In this document: positions 50,408 through 62,791 of the stretch, piece by piece | How positions within the stretch are numbered: the stretch's first letter is position 1 | Layout: each line of letters begins with the position of its first letter | NCBI RefSeq assembly: GCF_003073375.1 | Contig: NZ_CP029002.1 | Coordinates: 2,404,001-2,468,000, forward strand | Reading direction: 5' to 3' | From: Lysinibacillus sp. 2017 | GTDB taxonomy: Bacteria; Bacillota; Bacilli; Bacillales_A; Planococcaceae | DNA length: 64,000 nt | Program-made: the position numbers and the translations under genes | Notes under the pieces: generated by a model | What the model was told of the DNA's origin: nothing | Database searches by the model: none | The model's input: the letters and a program-made list of their open reading frames with translations, nothing else

Positions 50408-50452
50408 AGGTGATTCGTAGGAAAATAAATTTCCTCTGAATCACCTTTTTTT
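50408..50452. terminator. bidirectional terminator
   Basis: Long hairpin GGTGATTCGTAGGAAA/TTTCCTCTGAATCACC with a T-run, shared by yqfW and the murein-peptide operon. Confidence 0.88.
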
Positions 50453-51263
50453 AAAATAAACTGGCAACACCTGTAATCGTCGTCGCCAAATCTTCTCGGT
50501 AGTTTTCTTCATGTGGATTTAAACTATTCACATTCACTTCATTGCCACCAAGTGATGAGTGAATATAATGATCATCGCCTATATACATCGCTACATGCCC
50601 AGGGAAGAAAATTAAATCCCCGCGTTTCATCTGTTCCAGTGTTATTTCACGTAACGGGAAACCGTCAATTATTTTCGCATCACGATAAATATAAGCCCCA
50701 TTTAACATATACGCCATCGAACAAAGACCAGAGCAGTCAATTCCTAAAGGTGATTTTCCACCCCATCGATAAGGTGTTCCTAAATAACGCAAAGCCGTTT
50801 GTACGACTTGCTGGCGGAATAAATCTTCGGTTGTCGTATATACTTTCACACGATTTTGCACCCAATCCGATCGTACATACCCACATTCACCTGATACGAG
50901 CTGTACTTTTGACCAGCCTTTTTCAATACCAGCCTCTTCCACCACTTGAATAAATGCACCTCGTGTTAACGTCATGATTTTAGCGCTTTGAATTTTAGGT
51001 GCAGTTAATACATCTGCAAAACTTTCAATGACAACATCATTAGCATCGGCATTCCAAGCAGTTAACGTTTCACTGTTTAGGTCTAAATTTTCTTTTAAAG
51101 TAAACCCTTCATAACGATAAAATGTACGAATCCGAACCCACTTGTCATCCACATCTTCTAACACTTCTACAGGCATTCCGTACAATGCTTCATCAACTAG
51201 CTCTGATAAAACATCTGCTTTATCATGTAAATTTGCAATCATCACATTGACTACTGCATTCAA
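50451..51263 (-). CDS. NlpC/P60 gamma-D-glutamyl-L-diamino acid endopeptidase (YkfC-like)
   Basis: A 270-residue cysteine peptidase that splits D-Glu from the diamino acid in murein peptides with a free N-terminal L-Ala. Two SH3-like domains (about 3-60 and 75-135) are followed by the catalytic domain: Cys177 in GIDCSGLC, His223 in PGHVAMY, His235 in HYIHSS. No signal peptide is seen, so it should work on imported peptides. Last gene of the operon, overlapping the preceding stop by 4 bases. Confidence 0.9.
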   Translation of the reverse strand: MNAVVNVMIANLHDKADVLSELVDEALYGMPVEVLEDVDDKWVRIRTFYRYEGFTLKENLDLNSETLTAWNADANDVVIESFADVLTAPKIQSAKIMTLTRGAFIQVVEEAGIEKGWSKVQLVSGECGYVRSDWVQNRVKVYTTTEDLFRQQVVQTALRYLGTPYRWGGKSPLGIDCSGLCSMAYMLNGAYIYRDAKIIDGFPLREITLEQMKRGDLIFFPGHVAMYIGDDHYIHSSLGGNEVNVNSLNPHEENYREDLATTITGVASLF

Positions 51264-52042
51264 GTCCTTCCCCCCTTATTCACAACATGTTCATAAACCA
51301 TTTTTGAAATAAGACCAATTTCCTGTTTTGCCTTTTCGTTATTGGTTACTTCTGTAATAAAAACACCAATAAAATAAGCGGTCCCATCTGTATACACAAT
51401 GCCTACATCATGATCAACCGTATCAAGGCCCCCTGTTTTATGCGCCATTTTCACTGGCTCTAAAAGATAGCGCTTTAAGGAATCTTGACTTCGTTGCCTA
51501 CATAAAATATCGATGGCGATGTCATTCCACTTTGGTTCAAGCAATTTACCTTCATAGATTAGCTTAAACAAATGTTGCATATCTCGTGCTGACGTCTCAT
51601 TATCAAGACCAAGTTGCTGACGCTCGAAGTCCATCATCTTTCGTTGAACAACCGTATTGCTTAAACCAATTTCTTTAAAATAACGATTGAATTCATCCAT
51701 CCCTAAGAAGTCTATGCATTCATTTGTAGCTGTATTATCACTCGTAATAATCATCCATGTTAATAGTTCATACAATGTAGCTGAAGTTTGCTGCTGTTCC
51801 GTGATGACACTAAACTCAACGACATTTTCAGAGGCAATCGTTAGCACTTGCTGTAAGTCTCCACCTTTTTGTTGTAAATGATGCAAAATAGCGATTAAAA
51901 TTGGCACTTTTATTACACTTGCACTACTAAAAACCTCATCGGCACGAATATGAACGAGCACTTCATCTGTTTCATAGTCTTGAACAACCGTATGAATTTT
52001 ATAAGAACTATTTTCAATAAATTGCTGGATAATTTCATTCAT
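51260..52042 (-). CDS. class A beta-lactamase-fold serine hydrolase, no signal peptide
   Basis: A 260-residue protein with all three active-site motifs of class A beta-lactamases: S42-V-I-K45 (SxxK), S101-D-N103, and K202-T-G204. A Glu at residue 140 stands near the expected place of the deacylating Glu166. Residues 1-30 (MNEIIQQFIENSSYKI) are not a signal peptide. Placed between LD-carboxypeptidase and NlpC/P60, a peptidase role on murein-derived peptides is more plausible than antibiotic resistance, but this is inference. Confidence 0.88.
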   Translation of the reverse strand: MNEIIQQFIENSSYKIHTVVQDYETDEVLVHIRADEVFSSASVIKVPILIAILHHLQQKGGDLQQVLTIASENVVEFSVITEQQQTSATLYELLTWMIITSDNTATNECIDFLGMDEFNRYFKEIGLSNTVVQRKMMDFERQQLGLDNETSARDMQHLFKLIYEGKLLEPKWNDIAIDILCRQRSQDSLKRYLLEPVKMAHKTGGLDTVDHDVGIVYTDGTAYFIGVFITEVTNNEKAKQEIGLISKMVYEHVVNKGGRT

Positions 52043-52046
52043 CGGC

Positions 52047-52985
52047 TTAACCTATAACACGAATTGTTTTATTCGAAGTATCCACTGTTACAGTTTTTCC
52101 AAGTGGCAAAGACATCGTTGGTAGCACATGCCCACAAGTGACATTCATTAAAATTGGAATGTTCAGTGGGGCTAAAATTTCGTCAAAGACCGTTTCTAAA
52201 CTTAAATTATTTTCTGGATTTTTCGTATCCATTGGACCACAATCTGTCCATGCGCCAAGTAGGATTCCCGCTAATCCATCAAGCTTTCCTGACAATTGTA
52301 ATTGCGTTAACATACGGTCAATTCGCTGTACGTTTTCATCGATATCTTCTAAAAATAAAATTTTTCCATTTAAATCAATTTCATATGGTGTACCCAAAGA
52401 AGCGGCAACAAGCGTTAAATTTCCGCCTGTAAGTTTACCTGTTGCTGTTCCTGGCGAAAGGGTAATCATTTCTTCACCAACAACATTCTCTAACAGATAA
52501 TCGCTCCAAGCTGTGTTTGTCACGCTATTGATAAAGTAATCCCATGTGTAATCATCCATCTGGTCTTTAATAAATTCCGTTGATGGCATTGGAGTGTGAT
52601 ACGTTACAAAATTACAATGCTGATTGAATACAATATGCAATGCTGTAACATCGCTATAGCCAACAAAAACTTTCGGATTATTTTTAATGAGCTCTAAATC
52701 TAATAATGGTAAAATTCGTGTCGCCCCGTAACCACCGCGAATACAGAAAATGCCGTCGATTTCAGGATTTGCAAACATCGCATTTAATTCAGCAGCACGT
52801 AATGCATCTGATCCCGCTAAATAACCATGACGTGCACGACATGTTTCTCCTACAACAACATGGAATCCAAGCTTTTCAACTGCTTCGATCGCCGGTTGAA
52901 GGCGTTCAGTTGGTGTTGCACCTGAAGCACTAATGAGCGCAACGGTATCTCCCTTTTTAAGTGCCTTTGGAATGACTATACTCAT
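52047..52985 (-). CDS. LD-carboxypeptidase (peptidase S66, LdcA/YkfA-like)
   Basis: A 312-residue serine peptidase that removes the terminal D-Ala from murein tetrapeptides. Nucleophile Ser111 in FVGYSDVTALH, RGGYGATRILP before it, and Glu/His of the Ser-Glu-His triad in FLEDIDE and CGHVLPTMSLPLG. No signal peptide. Its start overlaps the oppF-like stop by 4 bases. Confidence 0.93.
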   Translation of the reverse strand: MSIVIPKALKKGDTVALISASGATPTERLQPAIEAVEKLGFHVVVGETCRARHGYLAGSDALRAAELNAMFANPEIDGIFCIRGGYGATRILPLLDLELIKNNPKVFVGYSDVTALHIVFNQHCNFVTYHTPMPSTEFIKDQMDDYTWDYFINSVTNTAWSDYLLENVVGEEMITLSPGTATGKLTGGNLTLVAASLGTPYEIDLNGKILFLEDIDENVQRIDRMLTQLQLSGKLDGLAGILLGAWTDCGPMDTKNPENNLSLETVFDEILAPLNIPILMNVTCGHVLPTMSLPLGKTVTVDTSNKTIRVIG

Positions 52986-61536: not shown

Positions 61537-61700
61537 ATTCTATGTATCTTCATTTAGATCGCTAATTATTATAAAATTTAGACTTTTCAGTTATTATTCT
61601 ATAAAATAACATATTTACTTCTAATGTGGAAGTTTTTTCTTTCATTTTGCTTTCTATATTGAAATAAGTGCTTTGTTTTTGTAAACACGTTGCATGCATT

Positions 61701-61733
61701 AAAAAAGCAGCGAAAGAAATCTTCGCTGCTCCT
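61701..61733 (-). terminator. terminator of the P1 peptidase gene
   Basis: Hairpin GAGCAGCGAAG/CTTTCGCTGCTTTTTT: AGCAGCGAA pairs with TTCGCTGCT, with a T-run. It separates the P1 peptidase from the operon that follows. Confidence 0.88.
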
Positions 61734-61744
61734 CCCTAAACAAA

Positions 61745-62791
61745 TTAATTAAATTGATATTTTTCAACGACATGTCCTTGTCTACCTACTGTTGTTTTCG
61801 CTTGTGACATTGAATTAAGTATCGCTTCTTCTGTTGCTTCAGCTGCTGCAGTAAATAATTGATTCATCATTGGGTGATCATCACGTAGTTGAGCTCGTGC
61901 TTCGACAAGTTCATTTGTTTTATGTGGTATTTGATGAGCCGTTGTAAAGCCGATAACAATGTCACCACTTCCGTTTGAAAAGTTACTACCTGTTCGACCT
62001 AGCCCAATCCCGCATCTTTTAATCACACGTGTCAATTGTCTACTACTAAGCGGGGCGTCTGTTGCTAATACAATAATAATTGACCCATCTGTAGGCGCAA
62101 TGGTAGAATTCGCCTGCTGTTTCGTAGTTGTATAACGCTCTTTCATAAATTCATTACTTGAACCAAAATTCGATAACACGAGACAACCAAGCATATACGT
62201 TTGATCCGTGTCCGCTACTTCTACGATTCTAGAAGCACTTCCAATTCCCCCTTTGTAGCCAAAGCACATCATTCCTTTACCTGCACCAACCGCGCCTTCT
62301 TCAGCCACTGAATTCGTCGCATTTTCAATGGATTCCTTTGCATGCTCTGGTAAAACGGGACAATGACGAATTGAATTTAAATGACCATCATTACATTCCC
62401 CGACGACGATATTTATTGTCCCTGTTAAAATGCCAATCTCTTCATTTTGTTCAAGTAAGTATTCTAATGTCCCTTGTGTAACGGCTGGTATTCCGAATGT
62501 ATTCGTCAACATAATCGGTGATTCGATAACACCTAGCTCATTCACTTGTACAAGACCTGTCGATTTCCCAAACCCATTTAACACATAACTTGCGGCTGTT
62601 ACCTTTTGCTGAAATAGATTTCCGCCATGCGGTAAAATGGCCGTCACACCTGTACAAGCCTTTTCCCCTTGTTCATTTAAAGGACTATCAAGCGTAACAT
62701 GTCCCACTTTCACACCCACAACATCAGTTATGCAATTTTTTTTACCTGGCTGTAATTGGCCAATTAGTATACCTCGTTCACGAATTTTCAT
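61745..62791 (-). CDS. P1-family (DmpA-like) aminopeptidase
   Basis: A 348-residue N-terminal-nucleophile peptidase of the S58/P1 family, related to the D-aminopeptidase DmpA and beta-peptidyl aminopeptidase. It matures by cutting itself before the nucleophile; the GGIGSASR segment at 181-188 is the place of that cut. Other signatures: ITDVVGVKVGHVTL, GVTAILPHGGNLF, ASYVLNGFGKSTG, GTINIVVGECNDG and ATDAPLSSRQLTRV. Its position just before the murein-peptide operon suggests D-residue peptides as substrates. Separate transcript. Confidence 0.93.
   Translation of the reverse strand: MKIRERGILIGQLQPGKKNCITDVVGVKVGHVTLDSPLNEQGEKACTGVTAILPHGGNLFQQKVTAASYVLNGFGKSTGLVQVNELGVIESPIMLTNTFGIPAVTQGTLEYLLEQNEEIGILTGTINIVVGECNDGHLNSIRHCPVLPEHAKESIENATNSVAEEGAVGAGKGMMCFGYKGGIGSASRIVEVADTDQTYMLGCLVLSNFGSSNEFMKERYTTTKQQANSTIAPTDGSIIIVLATDAPLSSRQLTRVIKRCGIGLGRTGSNFSNGSGDIVIGFTTAHQIPHKTNELVEARAQLRDDHPMMNQLFTAAAEATEEAILNSMSQAKTTVGRQGHVVEKYQFN

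What the first reader, a model, noticed from the sequence alone, without database searches (positions are those of the whole stretch)
50451..62791. Enlarged murein-peptide scavenging operon joining dpp- and ykf-type genes with VanX and a beta-lactamase-like enzyme
Ten overlapping or closely spaced genes encode an importer and enzymes for nearly every bond in a wall peptide: D-Ala-D-Ala (VanX), D-amino N-terminus (DppA), L-Ala-D-Glu (epimerase), diamino acid-D-Ala (LD-carboxypeptidase), D-Glu-diamino acid (NlpC/P60), plus a P1 aminopeptidase next door. In B. subtilis these are two smaller sets and lack VanX and the class A-like protein. This looks like a complete pathway to live on cell-wall peptides, possibly from other bacteria.
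Basis: partly seen in the sequence, partly recalled or inferred. Interest (0 to 1): 0.72.

Follow-up and report, generated by a model that had tools for sequence, protein, structure and literature searches.

The report
Wall-peptide scavenging operon, odd VanX start
A soil-type bacterium carries an eleven-gene unit that appears to import and dismantle cell-wall peptides inside the cell; it includes an enzyme shaped like a beta-lactamase that probably is not one, and a VanX-like gene that appears to begin with a rare, weak start codon.

Summary
The genes are real. On the minus strand eleven genes (vanX-dppA-ykfB-dppE-B-C-D-F-ldcA-'blaL'-ykfC, 61521-50451) run between two terminator hairpins; the S58 aminopeptidase (61745-62791) is a separate unit upstream. 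Cytosolic breakdown of imported wall peptides is the best reading. Most of the kit is known (B. subtilis dpp-ykf, DPP VI, E. coli ddpXABCDF), and the unit is inherited in the family (19 of 20 fetched neighbourhoods).

Two points go beyond the finding. (1) The 'beta-lactamase' has no export signal and carries RKMMD where class A enzymes have Glu166; its nearest characterised relative is the DD-peptidase PBP-A. A supported clade (28 of 28 rows) lies beside ykfB/ykfC, and one clostridial relative fuses BlaL to YkfC. Probably a cytosolic DD-peptidase. (2) vanX seems to start at AUU/AUA/AUC behind a strong Shine-Dalgarno: of 48 intact copies in 60 operons, 35 have no ATG/GTG/TTG within two codons and 16 none from -12 to +8; dppA is ATG in 52 of 52. 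vanX is absent in 10 and disrupted in 2 of 60. I infer a throttle protecting the cell's own D-Ala-D-Ala. CodY control is unsupported. No activity was tested.

The parts
60790..61521 (-). vanX-like (M15D) D-Ala-D-Ala dipeptidase; probable start ATT 61521-61519 (the ORF lister gives TTG 61536)
61529..61534 (-). Shine-Dalgarno GAGGTG, 7 nt before ATT
   Evidence: sequence; same place in relatives
59999..60793 (-). dppA, D-aminopeptidase (M55); overlaps vanX by 4 bp
   Evidence: Pfam 292.1 bits; B. subtilis DppA 1hi9 E 6.8e-25; below the NCBIfam DppA cut-off (139 of 430)
58907..59974 (-). ykfB, L-Ala-D/L-Glu epimerase
   Evidence: 382 bits to the B. subtilis epimerase 1jpm
57028..58857 (-). dppE-type lipoprotein, peptide-binding
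   Evidence: SBP_bac_5 193.6 bits; lipobox-like N-terminus LVLAAC read from the sequence
55967..56911 (-). dppB, permease
   Evidence: BPD_transp_1 137.1 bits
54993..55967 (-). dppC, permease
   Evidence: BPD_transp_1 79.8 bits, OppC_N
53931..54977 (-). dppD, ATPase
   Evidence: ABC_tran 113.7 bits, oligo_HPY
52982..53962 (-). dppF/ykfD-type ATPase
   Evidence: ABC_tran 104.6 bits, oligo_HPY
52047..52985 (-). ldcA/ykfA-type LD-carboxypeptidase (S66)
   Evidence: S66 N 142.8 and C 131 bits
51260..52042 (-). 'blaL', class A-fold serine hydrolase with SxxK, SDN, KTG and RKMMD, no export signal
50451..51263 (-). ykfC/DPP VI-type gamma-D-Glu-diamino acid endopeptidase (NlpC/P60 with SH3)
   Evidence: Cys177, Asp195 (Cys+18), His223, His235 against the residues given in PMC2954226
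61701..61735 (-). terminator hairpin between S58 gene and vanX
   Evidence: -19.0 kcal/mol fold, T-run
50405..50449 (-). hairpin at the end of the operon
   Evidence: -23.4 kcal/mol fold
61745..62791 (-). S58 (P1) aminopeptidase, separate unit, conserved neighbour
   Evidence: Pfam 365 bits; 319 bits to 2drh, 168 to 1b65; upstream in 19 of 19 sampled operons

Best explanation
The unit is a vertically inherited operon for eating or recycling murein peptides inside the cell. DppE-BCDF imports stem-peptide fragments (inferred). In the cytosol BlaL, a class A-fold serine DD-peptidase without the beta-lactamase glutamate, trims DD ends (inferred); LdcA removes the next D-Ala from tetrapeptide; YkfC cuts gamma-D-Glu-diamino acid in peptides with a free L-Ala; YkfB epimerises L-Ala-D-Glu to L-Ala-L-Glu; VanX and DppA split D-Ala-D-Ala and other D-amino peptides. 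Free VanX activity would also consume the D-Ala-D-Ala that the cell's Ddl makes for its own wall. I propose that this is why vanX is read from an AUU/AUA/AUC start codon behind a strong Shine-Dalgarno, which would keep synthesis low, and why vanX is often lost. Shown by sequence: gene content, order, catalytic residues, a conserved near-cognate codon at the start position, coding constraint beginning there. Inferred: substrates, the BlaL reaction, the throttle and its reason.
For: Families and residues. Synteny in 19 of 20 fetched neighbourhoods. BlaL: Met136 aligns with PBP-A Leu158, the place of the class A glutamate; RKMMD in 49 of 49 ortholog rows, some genomes counted twice; clade of 28 rows, 97/93, all beside ykfB or ykfC; BlaL-YkfC fusion in L012. 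VanX: of 48 intact copies 35 have no ATG/GTG/TTG within 2 codons of the aligned start and have ATA/ATT/ATC within 1; 16 have none from -12 to +8, and in 12 of these 16 the frame opens 6 codons or less upstream; canonical codon at the same kind of place in dppA 52/52, S58 53/53, ykfB 21/22; base differences by codon position .268/.257/.295 upstream against .149/.068/.304 in codons +1 to +9, 41 pairs; host infC has GGAGGTGG then ATT codons; one Ddl over its cut-off.
Against: No activity, binding, expression or N-terminus was measured. In the window an in-frame TTG (codon -5), and in others an in-frame GTG (-3), lies in the Shine-Dalgarno region. Of the 13 copies with a canonical codon nearby, 8 have ATG and 1 TTG at the start position, so the weak start is not universal. 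vanX and dppA overlap, so a weak vanX start might limit dppA as well. VanX, DppA, epimerase, LdcA and BlaL score below the NCBIfam equivalog cut-offs. BlaL relatives outside the main clade are mostly unlinked: 18 of 20 regions in the phylum sample, 20 of 20 in the distant family group as I counted them. Fold scores do not separate DD-peptidase from beta-lactamase.
Confidence: 0.65

Rival explanations
1. vanX starts canonically (TTG or GTG overlapping the Shine-Dalgarno) or is a decaying gene that has lost its start.
For: In-frame TTG at codon -5 in the window and GTG at -3 in others. vanX has the highest dN/dS of seven genes measured (median 0.21), is absent in 10 and disrupted in 2 of 60, and two of 45 aligned copies lost the EWWH histidine.
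Against: 16 of 48 intact copies have no canonical codon from -12 to +8, and in 12 of these the frame opens 6 codons or less upstream. No codon rhythm upstream, clear rhythm from +1. dN/dS 0.13-0.31 over 29 pairs means purifying selection. Arg86, His135, Asp142 and Glu203 are the same in 45 of 45.
Confidence: 0.15
2. The unit serves antibiotic defence: VanX with the class A-like protein protects against glycopeptides and beta-lactams.
For: Family names alone: M15 VanX-like and Beta-lactamase2.
Against: BlaL lacks Glu166 and an export signal and scores 125.2 of 200 on the class A model; both genes sit in an importer-epimerase-endopeptidase unit; no vanHA-type genes among the ORFs of 100 aa or more that I inspected at 47-64 kb.
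Confidence: 0.06
3. Same chemistry, other purpose: the operon recycles the cell's own wall or spore cortex fragments rather than scavenging food from other bacteria. Not exclusive with the main reading.
For: Its YkfC belongs with B. sphaericus DPP VI, an enzyme known from sporulating cells (recalled). The genome has two murE genes over the cut-off, as expected where vegetative wall and cortex differ (recalled).
Against: A whole importer with eight hydrolases and epimerase suggests exogenous or shed peptides; nothing in sequence decides. No sporulation-type promoter was tested.
Confidence: 0.45

Closest known systems
B. subtilis dppABCDE-ykfABCD
   Same: Importer, D-aminopeptidase, LD-carboxypeptidase, epimerase and gamma-D-Glu-DAP endopeptidase, cytosolic, neighbouring genes (PMC2954226, passages; PMC3305447, passages; full gene order recalled)
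   Different: Other gene order, one unit, plus vanX and blaL; S58 gene next door. B. subtilis-type order with blaL added exists in L038 and L153
E. coli ddpXABCDF
   Same: VanX homologue first, followed by a dipeptide ABC importer in one operon (PMC8743547, passages)
   Different: E. coli unit has no murein-peptide endopeptidase, epimerase or BlaL (recalled) and is controlled by NtrC and RpoN
B. sphaericus dipeptidyl-peptidase VI / BcYkfC
   Same: NlpC/P60 with SH3 domains, Cys-His-His and the specificity aspartate at Cys+18
   Different: Seven residues fewer between Cys and His than in BcYkfC (46 against 53); B. cereus enzyme has a signal peptide
PBP-A of Thermosynechococcus (2j7v) and Veillonella class A-like protein (4hes)
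   Different: BlaL lies in the cytosol, has RKMMD and sits with YkfB/YkfC; 30 and 27% identity over the aligned parts
Conserved AUU/AUA start codons (infC; cvfC1, ccpN of S. aureus)
   Same: Strong extended Shine-Dalgarno followed by AUU or AUA conserved between species (PMC13009471, passages)
   Different: Here the gene is a metabolic hydrolase related to VanX; the codon drifts among ATA, ATT, ATC and, in one group, ATG

Membership tests
dpp-ykf type murein-peptide operon | Dpp importer with LD-carboxypeptidase, L-Ala-D/L-Glu epimerase and YkfC endopeptidase in one neighbourhood | tested here: met
dpp-ykf type murein-peptide operon | Uptake and use of murein peptides | not testable with these tools
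   needs growth and binding tests
YkfC/DPP VI subfamily of NlpC/P60 | Catalytic Cys-His-His and Asp at the BcYkfC 256 position | tested here: met
   Cys177, Asp195, His223, His235
YkfC/DPP VI subfamily of NlpC/P60 | Conserved tyrosine in the first SH3b domain (Tyr118) | tested here: inconclusive
   A YEGF tyrosine aligns with YTGW of 3npf; its identity with Tyr118 was not checked
VanX / DdpX D-Ala-D-Ala dipeptidase (M15D) | M15 fold and zinc/catalytic residues HxxGxAxD and ExWWH | tested here: met
VanX / DdpX D-Ala-D-Ala dipeptidase (M15D) | Curated NCBIfam cut-off | tested here: not met
   PRK10178 77.5 of 176, VanX 49.1 of 320: a VanX-like relative, not the named equivalogs
Class A beta-lactamase | Omega-loop Glu166 | tested here: not met
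   Met136 at the PBP-A L158 position; RKMMD in 49 of 49 rows
Class A beta-lactamase | Export from the cytosol | tested here: not met
   No hydrophobic N-terminus by a crude hydropathy measure (0.11; exported relatives 2.1-3.1)
Class A beta-lactamase | Curated class A cut-off | tested here: not met
   125.2 of 200 bits
PBP-A-type DD-peptidase | Class A fold, SxxK, SDN-type and KTG motifs, no Glu166 | tested here: met
PBP-A-type DD-peptidase | DD-carboxypeptidase or endopeptidase activity | not testable with these tools
   needs enzyme assay
Gene with conserved near-cognate start codon | AUA/AUU/AUC at the conserved start with strong Shine-Dalgarno across species | tested here: met
   35 of 48 intact copies without a canonical codon within 2 codons, Shine-Dalgarno listed
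Gene with conserved near-cognate start codon | Initiation shown by ribosome profiling or N-terminal peptide | not testable with these tools
   needs bench work

The most novel reading that the evidence does not exclude
A food operon contains an enzyme that can starve its owner of wall precursor: the VanX-like dipeptidase attacks the same D-Ala-D-Ala that Ddl makes. The family answers by keeping vanX on AUU/AUA/AUC start codons, an infC-type translational brake on a metabolic hydrolase, or by losing the gene. Beside it works a separate, cytosolic branch of class A-fold DD-peptidases, unrelated in role to antibiotic resistance and so tied to YkfC that the two are fused into one protein in a clostridial relative.
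Probability: 0.42. Interest if true: 0.7.

Novelty: new variant of a known kind. Interest (0 to 1): 0.52.

Why it matters
It suggests that some proteins annotated as class A beta-lactamase in Firmicutes are cytosolic wall-peptide enzymes, which matters for resistance annotation and for how class A beta-lactamases arose from DD-peptidases. The apparent near-cognate start of vanX would be a rare conserved case outside infC and the few genes reported in S. aureus, with a testable reason: how a cell with a D-Ala-D-Ala wall tolerates a D-Ala-D-Ala dipeptidase. It also gives an operon context to DPP VI-type endopeptidases.

Tried and rejected
CodY control: the consensus AATTTTCWGAAAATT (recalled) is not enriched in the window (11 found, 14.6 expected); upstream of the operon 2 of 15 loci reach P<=0.05 against shuffles. 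A block upstream of vanX looks conserved by eye within the genus; I did not test it as a promoter.

Invariant QRKMMDFE: in the first set this 8-mer was invariant, but it was one of the six search seeds. The less biased set (profile search) kept RKMMD in 49 of 49 ortholog rows but the exact 8-mer in only 32 of 49, so E140 is not a candidate general base. That profile was itself built from the first set.

Class A beta-lactamase: rejected on the Glu166 position, missing export signal and model score. Fold search cannot decide it: beta-lactamases and PBP-A score alike.

First start-codon caller: as a control it called AT[ACT] starts for dppA in 45 of 62 loci, wrongly, because dppA's Shine-Dalgarno lies further from its ATG. 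I therefore dropped Shine-Dalgarno scoring and asked whether a canonical codon exists at the aligned position, where dppA is ATG in 52 of 52. DppD (17/25) and DppF (16/26) were poor controls because the window's listed start is not the conserved one; LdcA was 25/26.

BlaL linkage as a general rule: rejected outside the main clade. Linked (YkfB or YkfC match of at least 39% identity on the held flank): 23 of 37; L023 and L034, with 34-36% YkfB matches, were counted as unlinked. In one search the distant family group is 20 of 20 unlinked as I counted (L108 and L117 have a ykf-type cluster 6-9 kb off on the other strand; nine of the 20 have a DppD/DppF-type ATPase nearby, not counted), the phylum sample 18 of 20 unlinked. 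The tree left out L018, L023, L031, L033, L034, L036, L037, rows under 100 bits and 6 of the 19 operon loci; starred branches force only 2 label changes, parsimony gives 6.

Absence control: E. coli did not ring for M15 although K-12 has ddpX, so I did not use that control as evidence of absence.

Papers: co-occurrence searches for this gene set listed PMC2954226 and PMC11189452 as the relevant ones; a search for vanX with a non-canonical start listed none that I recognised as such. This covers only open-licence PMC papers, and lists were cut at 10-20.

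
Full report
WHAT IS THERE. The window lies in a 3.74-Mb single-contig genome whose close relatives are Lysinibacillus and Ureibacillus; no call names its genus. On the minus strand eleven genes run from vanX (61521) to ykfC (50451) with gaps of -32 to 116 bp. A hairpin with T-run separates them from the S58 gene upstream and another closes the unit. Every protein exceeds a fitting Pfam gathering score. Solved relatives are the B. subtilis L-Ala-D/L-Glu epimerase (382 bits), B. 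subtilis DppA (91 bits), VanX (39 bits) and putative dipeptidyl-peptidase VI chains. YkfC has the catalytic triad and the aspartate (Cys+18) that the BcYkfC paper uses to define enzymes needing a free N-terminal L-Ala. YkfC, LdcA, YkfB, DppA, VanX and BlaL lack a hydrophobic N-terminus by a crude hydropathy measure, so the chemistry is placed in the cytosol, as proposed for B. subtilis and unlike B. cereus, where YkfC has a signal peptide (PMC2954226, passages).

HOW CONSERVED. A scan of 84,980 species genomes with BlaL gave 37 loci. In 8 of 8 Lysinibacillus/Ureibacillus loci the order vanX-dppA-(ykfB)-dppE-B-C-D-F-ldcA-blaL-ykfC is kept, ykfB not found in L006. A search of 200 genomes of the family found BlaL-profile matches in 118, with a gap between close relatives (61 genomes, E 2.7e-95 or lower) and the rest (1.2e-61 or higher). 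Of 20 neighbourhoods fetched as close relatives, 19 hold the operon; the twentieth (L134) was a weak match. Among the 19, S58 lies upstream in 19, vanX is missing in 3 (L118, L119, L122) and ykfB in 3 (L125, L127, L133). So this is an inherited family operon. The mix is modular: Cytobacillus gottheilii (L038) and an unnamed member of the same class (L153) carry a B. subtilis-type order (that order recalled) followed by a blaL.

THE VANX START. The ORF lister gives TTG at 61536, but that codon overlaps the GAGGTG sequence. Aligned with relatives, the conserved protein begins at ATT 61521, seven bases after GAGGTG. I extended this to the upstream ends of 60 operons: the window, 19 and 40. vanX is absent in 10, disrupted in 2 and intact in 48. 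Of the 48, 35 have no ATG/GTG/TTG within two codons of the aligned start but have ATA, ATT or ATC within one codon. The other 13 have a canonical codon within two codons: 8 ATG and 1 TTG at the start position, and 4 with it two codons off while ATA or ATT stands at the start or one codon after it. Sixteen have no ATG/GTG/TTG from -12 to +8 codons; in 12 of them the frame opens six codons or less upstream. At the same kind of position dppA has ATG in 52 of 52 distinct copies, S58 a canonical codon in 53 of 53, ykfB 21 of 22, dppB 25 of 25. Base differences by codon position show no rhythm in codons -12 to -4 (.268.257.295) and a clear one in +1 to +9 (.149.068.304), 41 pairs. The host's infC, the textbook AUU gene (recalled), has GGAGGTGG followed by ATT codons. 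In S. aureus the AUU and AUA starts of cvfC1 and ccpN, conserved between species and preceded by extended Shine-Dalgarno sequences, gave about 10% of AUG reporter activity in poor medium, up to 30% for ccpN in rich medium (PMC13009471, passages).

The gene list and the general reading are right. In B. subtilis ykfA-D lie next to dppB-E. CodY is not supported. The unit lacks a dipeptidase for L-Ala-L-Glu and an enzyme for a wall cross-bridge; the S58 gene next door might serve one of these (idea only). Two murE genes over the cut-off leave the wall chemistry open.

LIMITS. Everything rests on sequence, predicted structure and comparison. Substrates, localisation, translation start and transcription are untested. 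Close relatives are not independent, and counts of copies are not counts of events. Six papers were seen as passages (PMC2954226, PMC3305447, PMC11189452, PMC13009471, PMC6403190, PMC8743547); others only as search listings.

Noticed in passing
window 56964-56993 (minus strand): Between dppE and dppB an AGGAGATG...CATCTCCT stem followed by TTCTTTTTT, seen by eye (sequence): a possible attenuator giving more binding protein than permease.
   Followed up: no
window 61536-61690, L118-L123, L137: A block AAAAAACTTCC...TATTTTAT upstream of vanX looks conserved within the genus, probably the promoter region; it remains in L118, L119 and L122, where vanX is gone.
   Followed up: partly
L012:9998-11599: Natural fusion of a BlaL-type domain and a YkfC-type enzyme in one 534-residue ORF.
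   Followed up: partly
L187 and L194 vanX: Otherwise intact VanX relatives in which the histidine of EWWH is replaced, probably inactive.
   Followed up: no
L122, between S58 gene and dppA: Remnant of the two ends of vanX, showing loss by deletion within the genus.
   Followed up: no
own genome, L158 (C1:782222) and L159 (C1:862858): Two murE genes over the family cut-off with different motifs at the amino-acid site, DDPR and DNAR: possibly a vegetative and a sporulation diamino-acid ligase.
   Followed up: partly
own genome, L166-L169: Four S66 LD-carboxypeptidase-type genes over the cut-off; only one is in the operon.
   Followed up: no
L146 (and L080): Two BlaL-type ORFs side by side, the second in a long ORF without the SxxK motif in the aligned place.
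   Followed up: no
window 63339-63827 (plus strand): Small lipoprotein-like ORF upstream of the S58 gene without a Pfam match.
   Followed up: no
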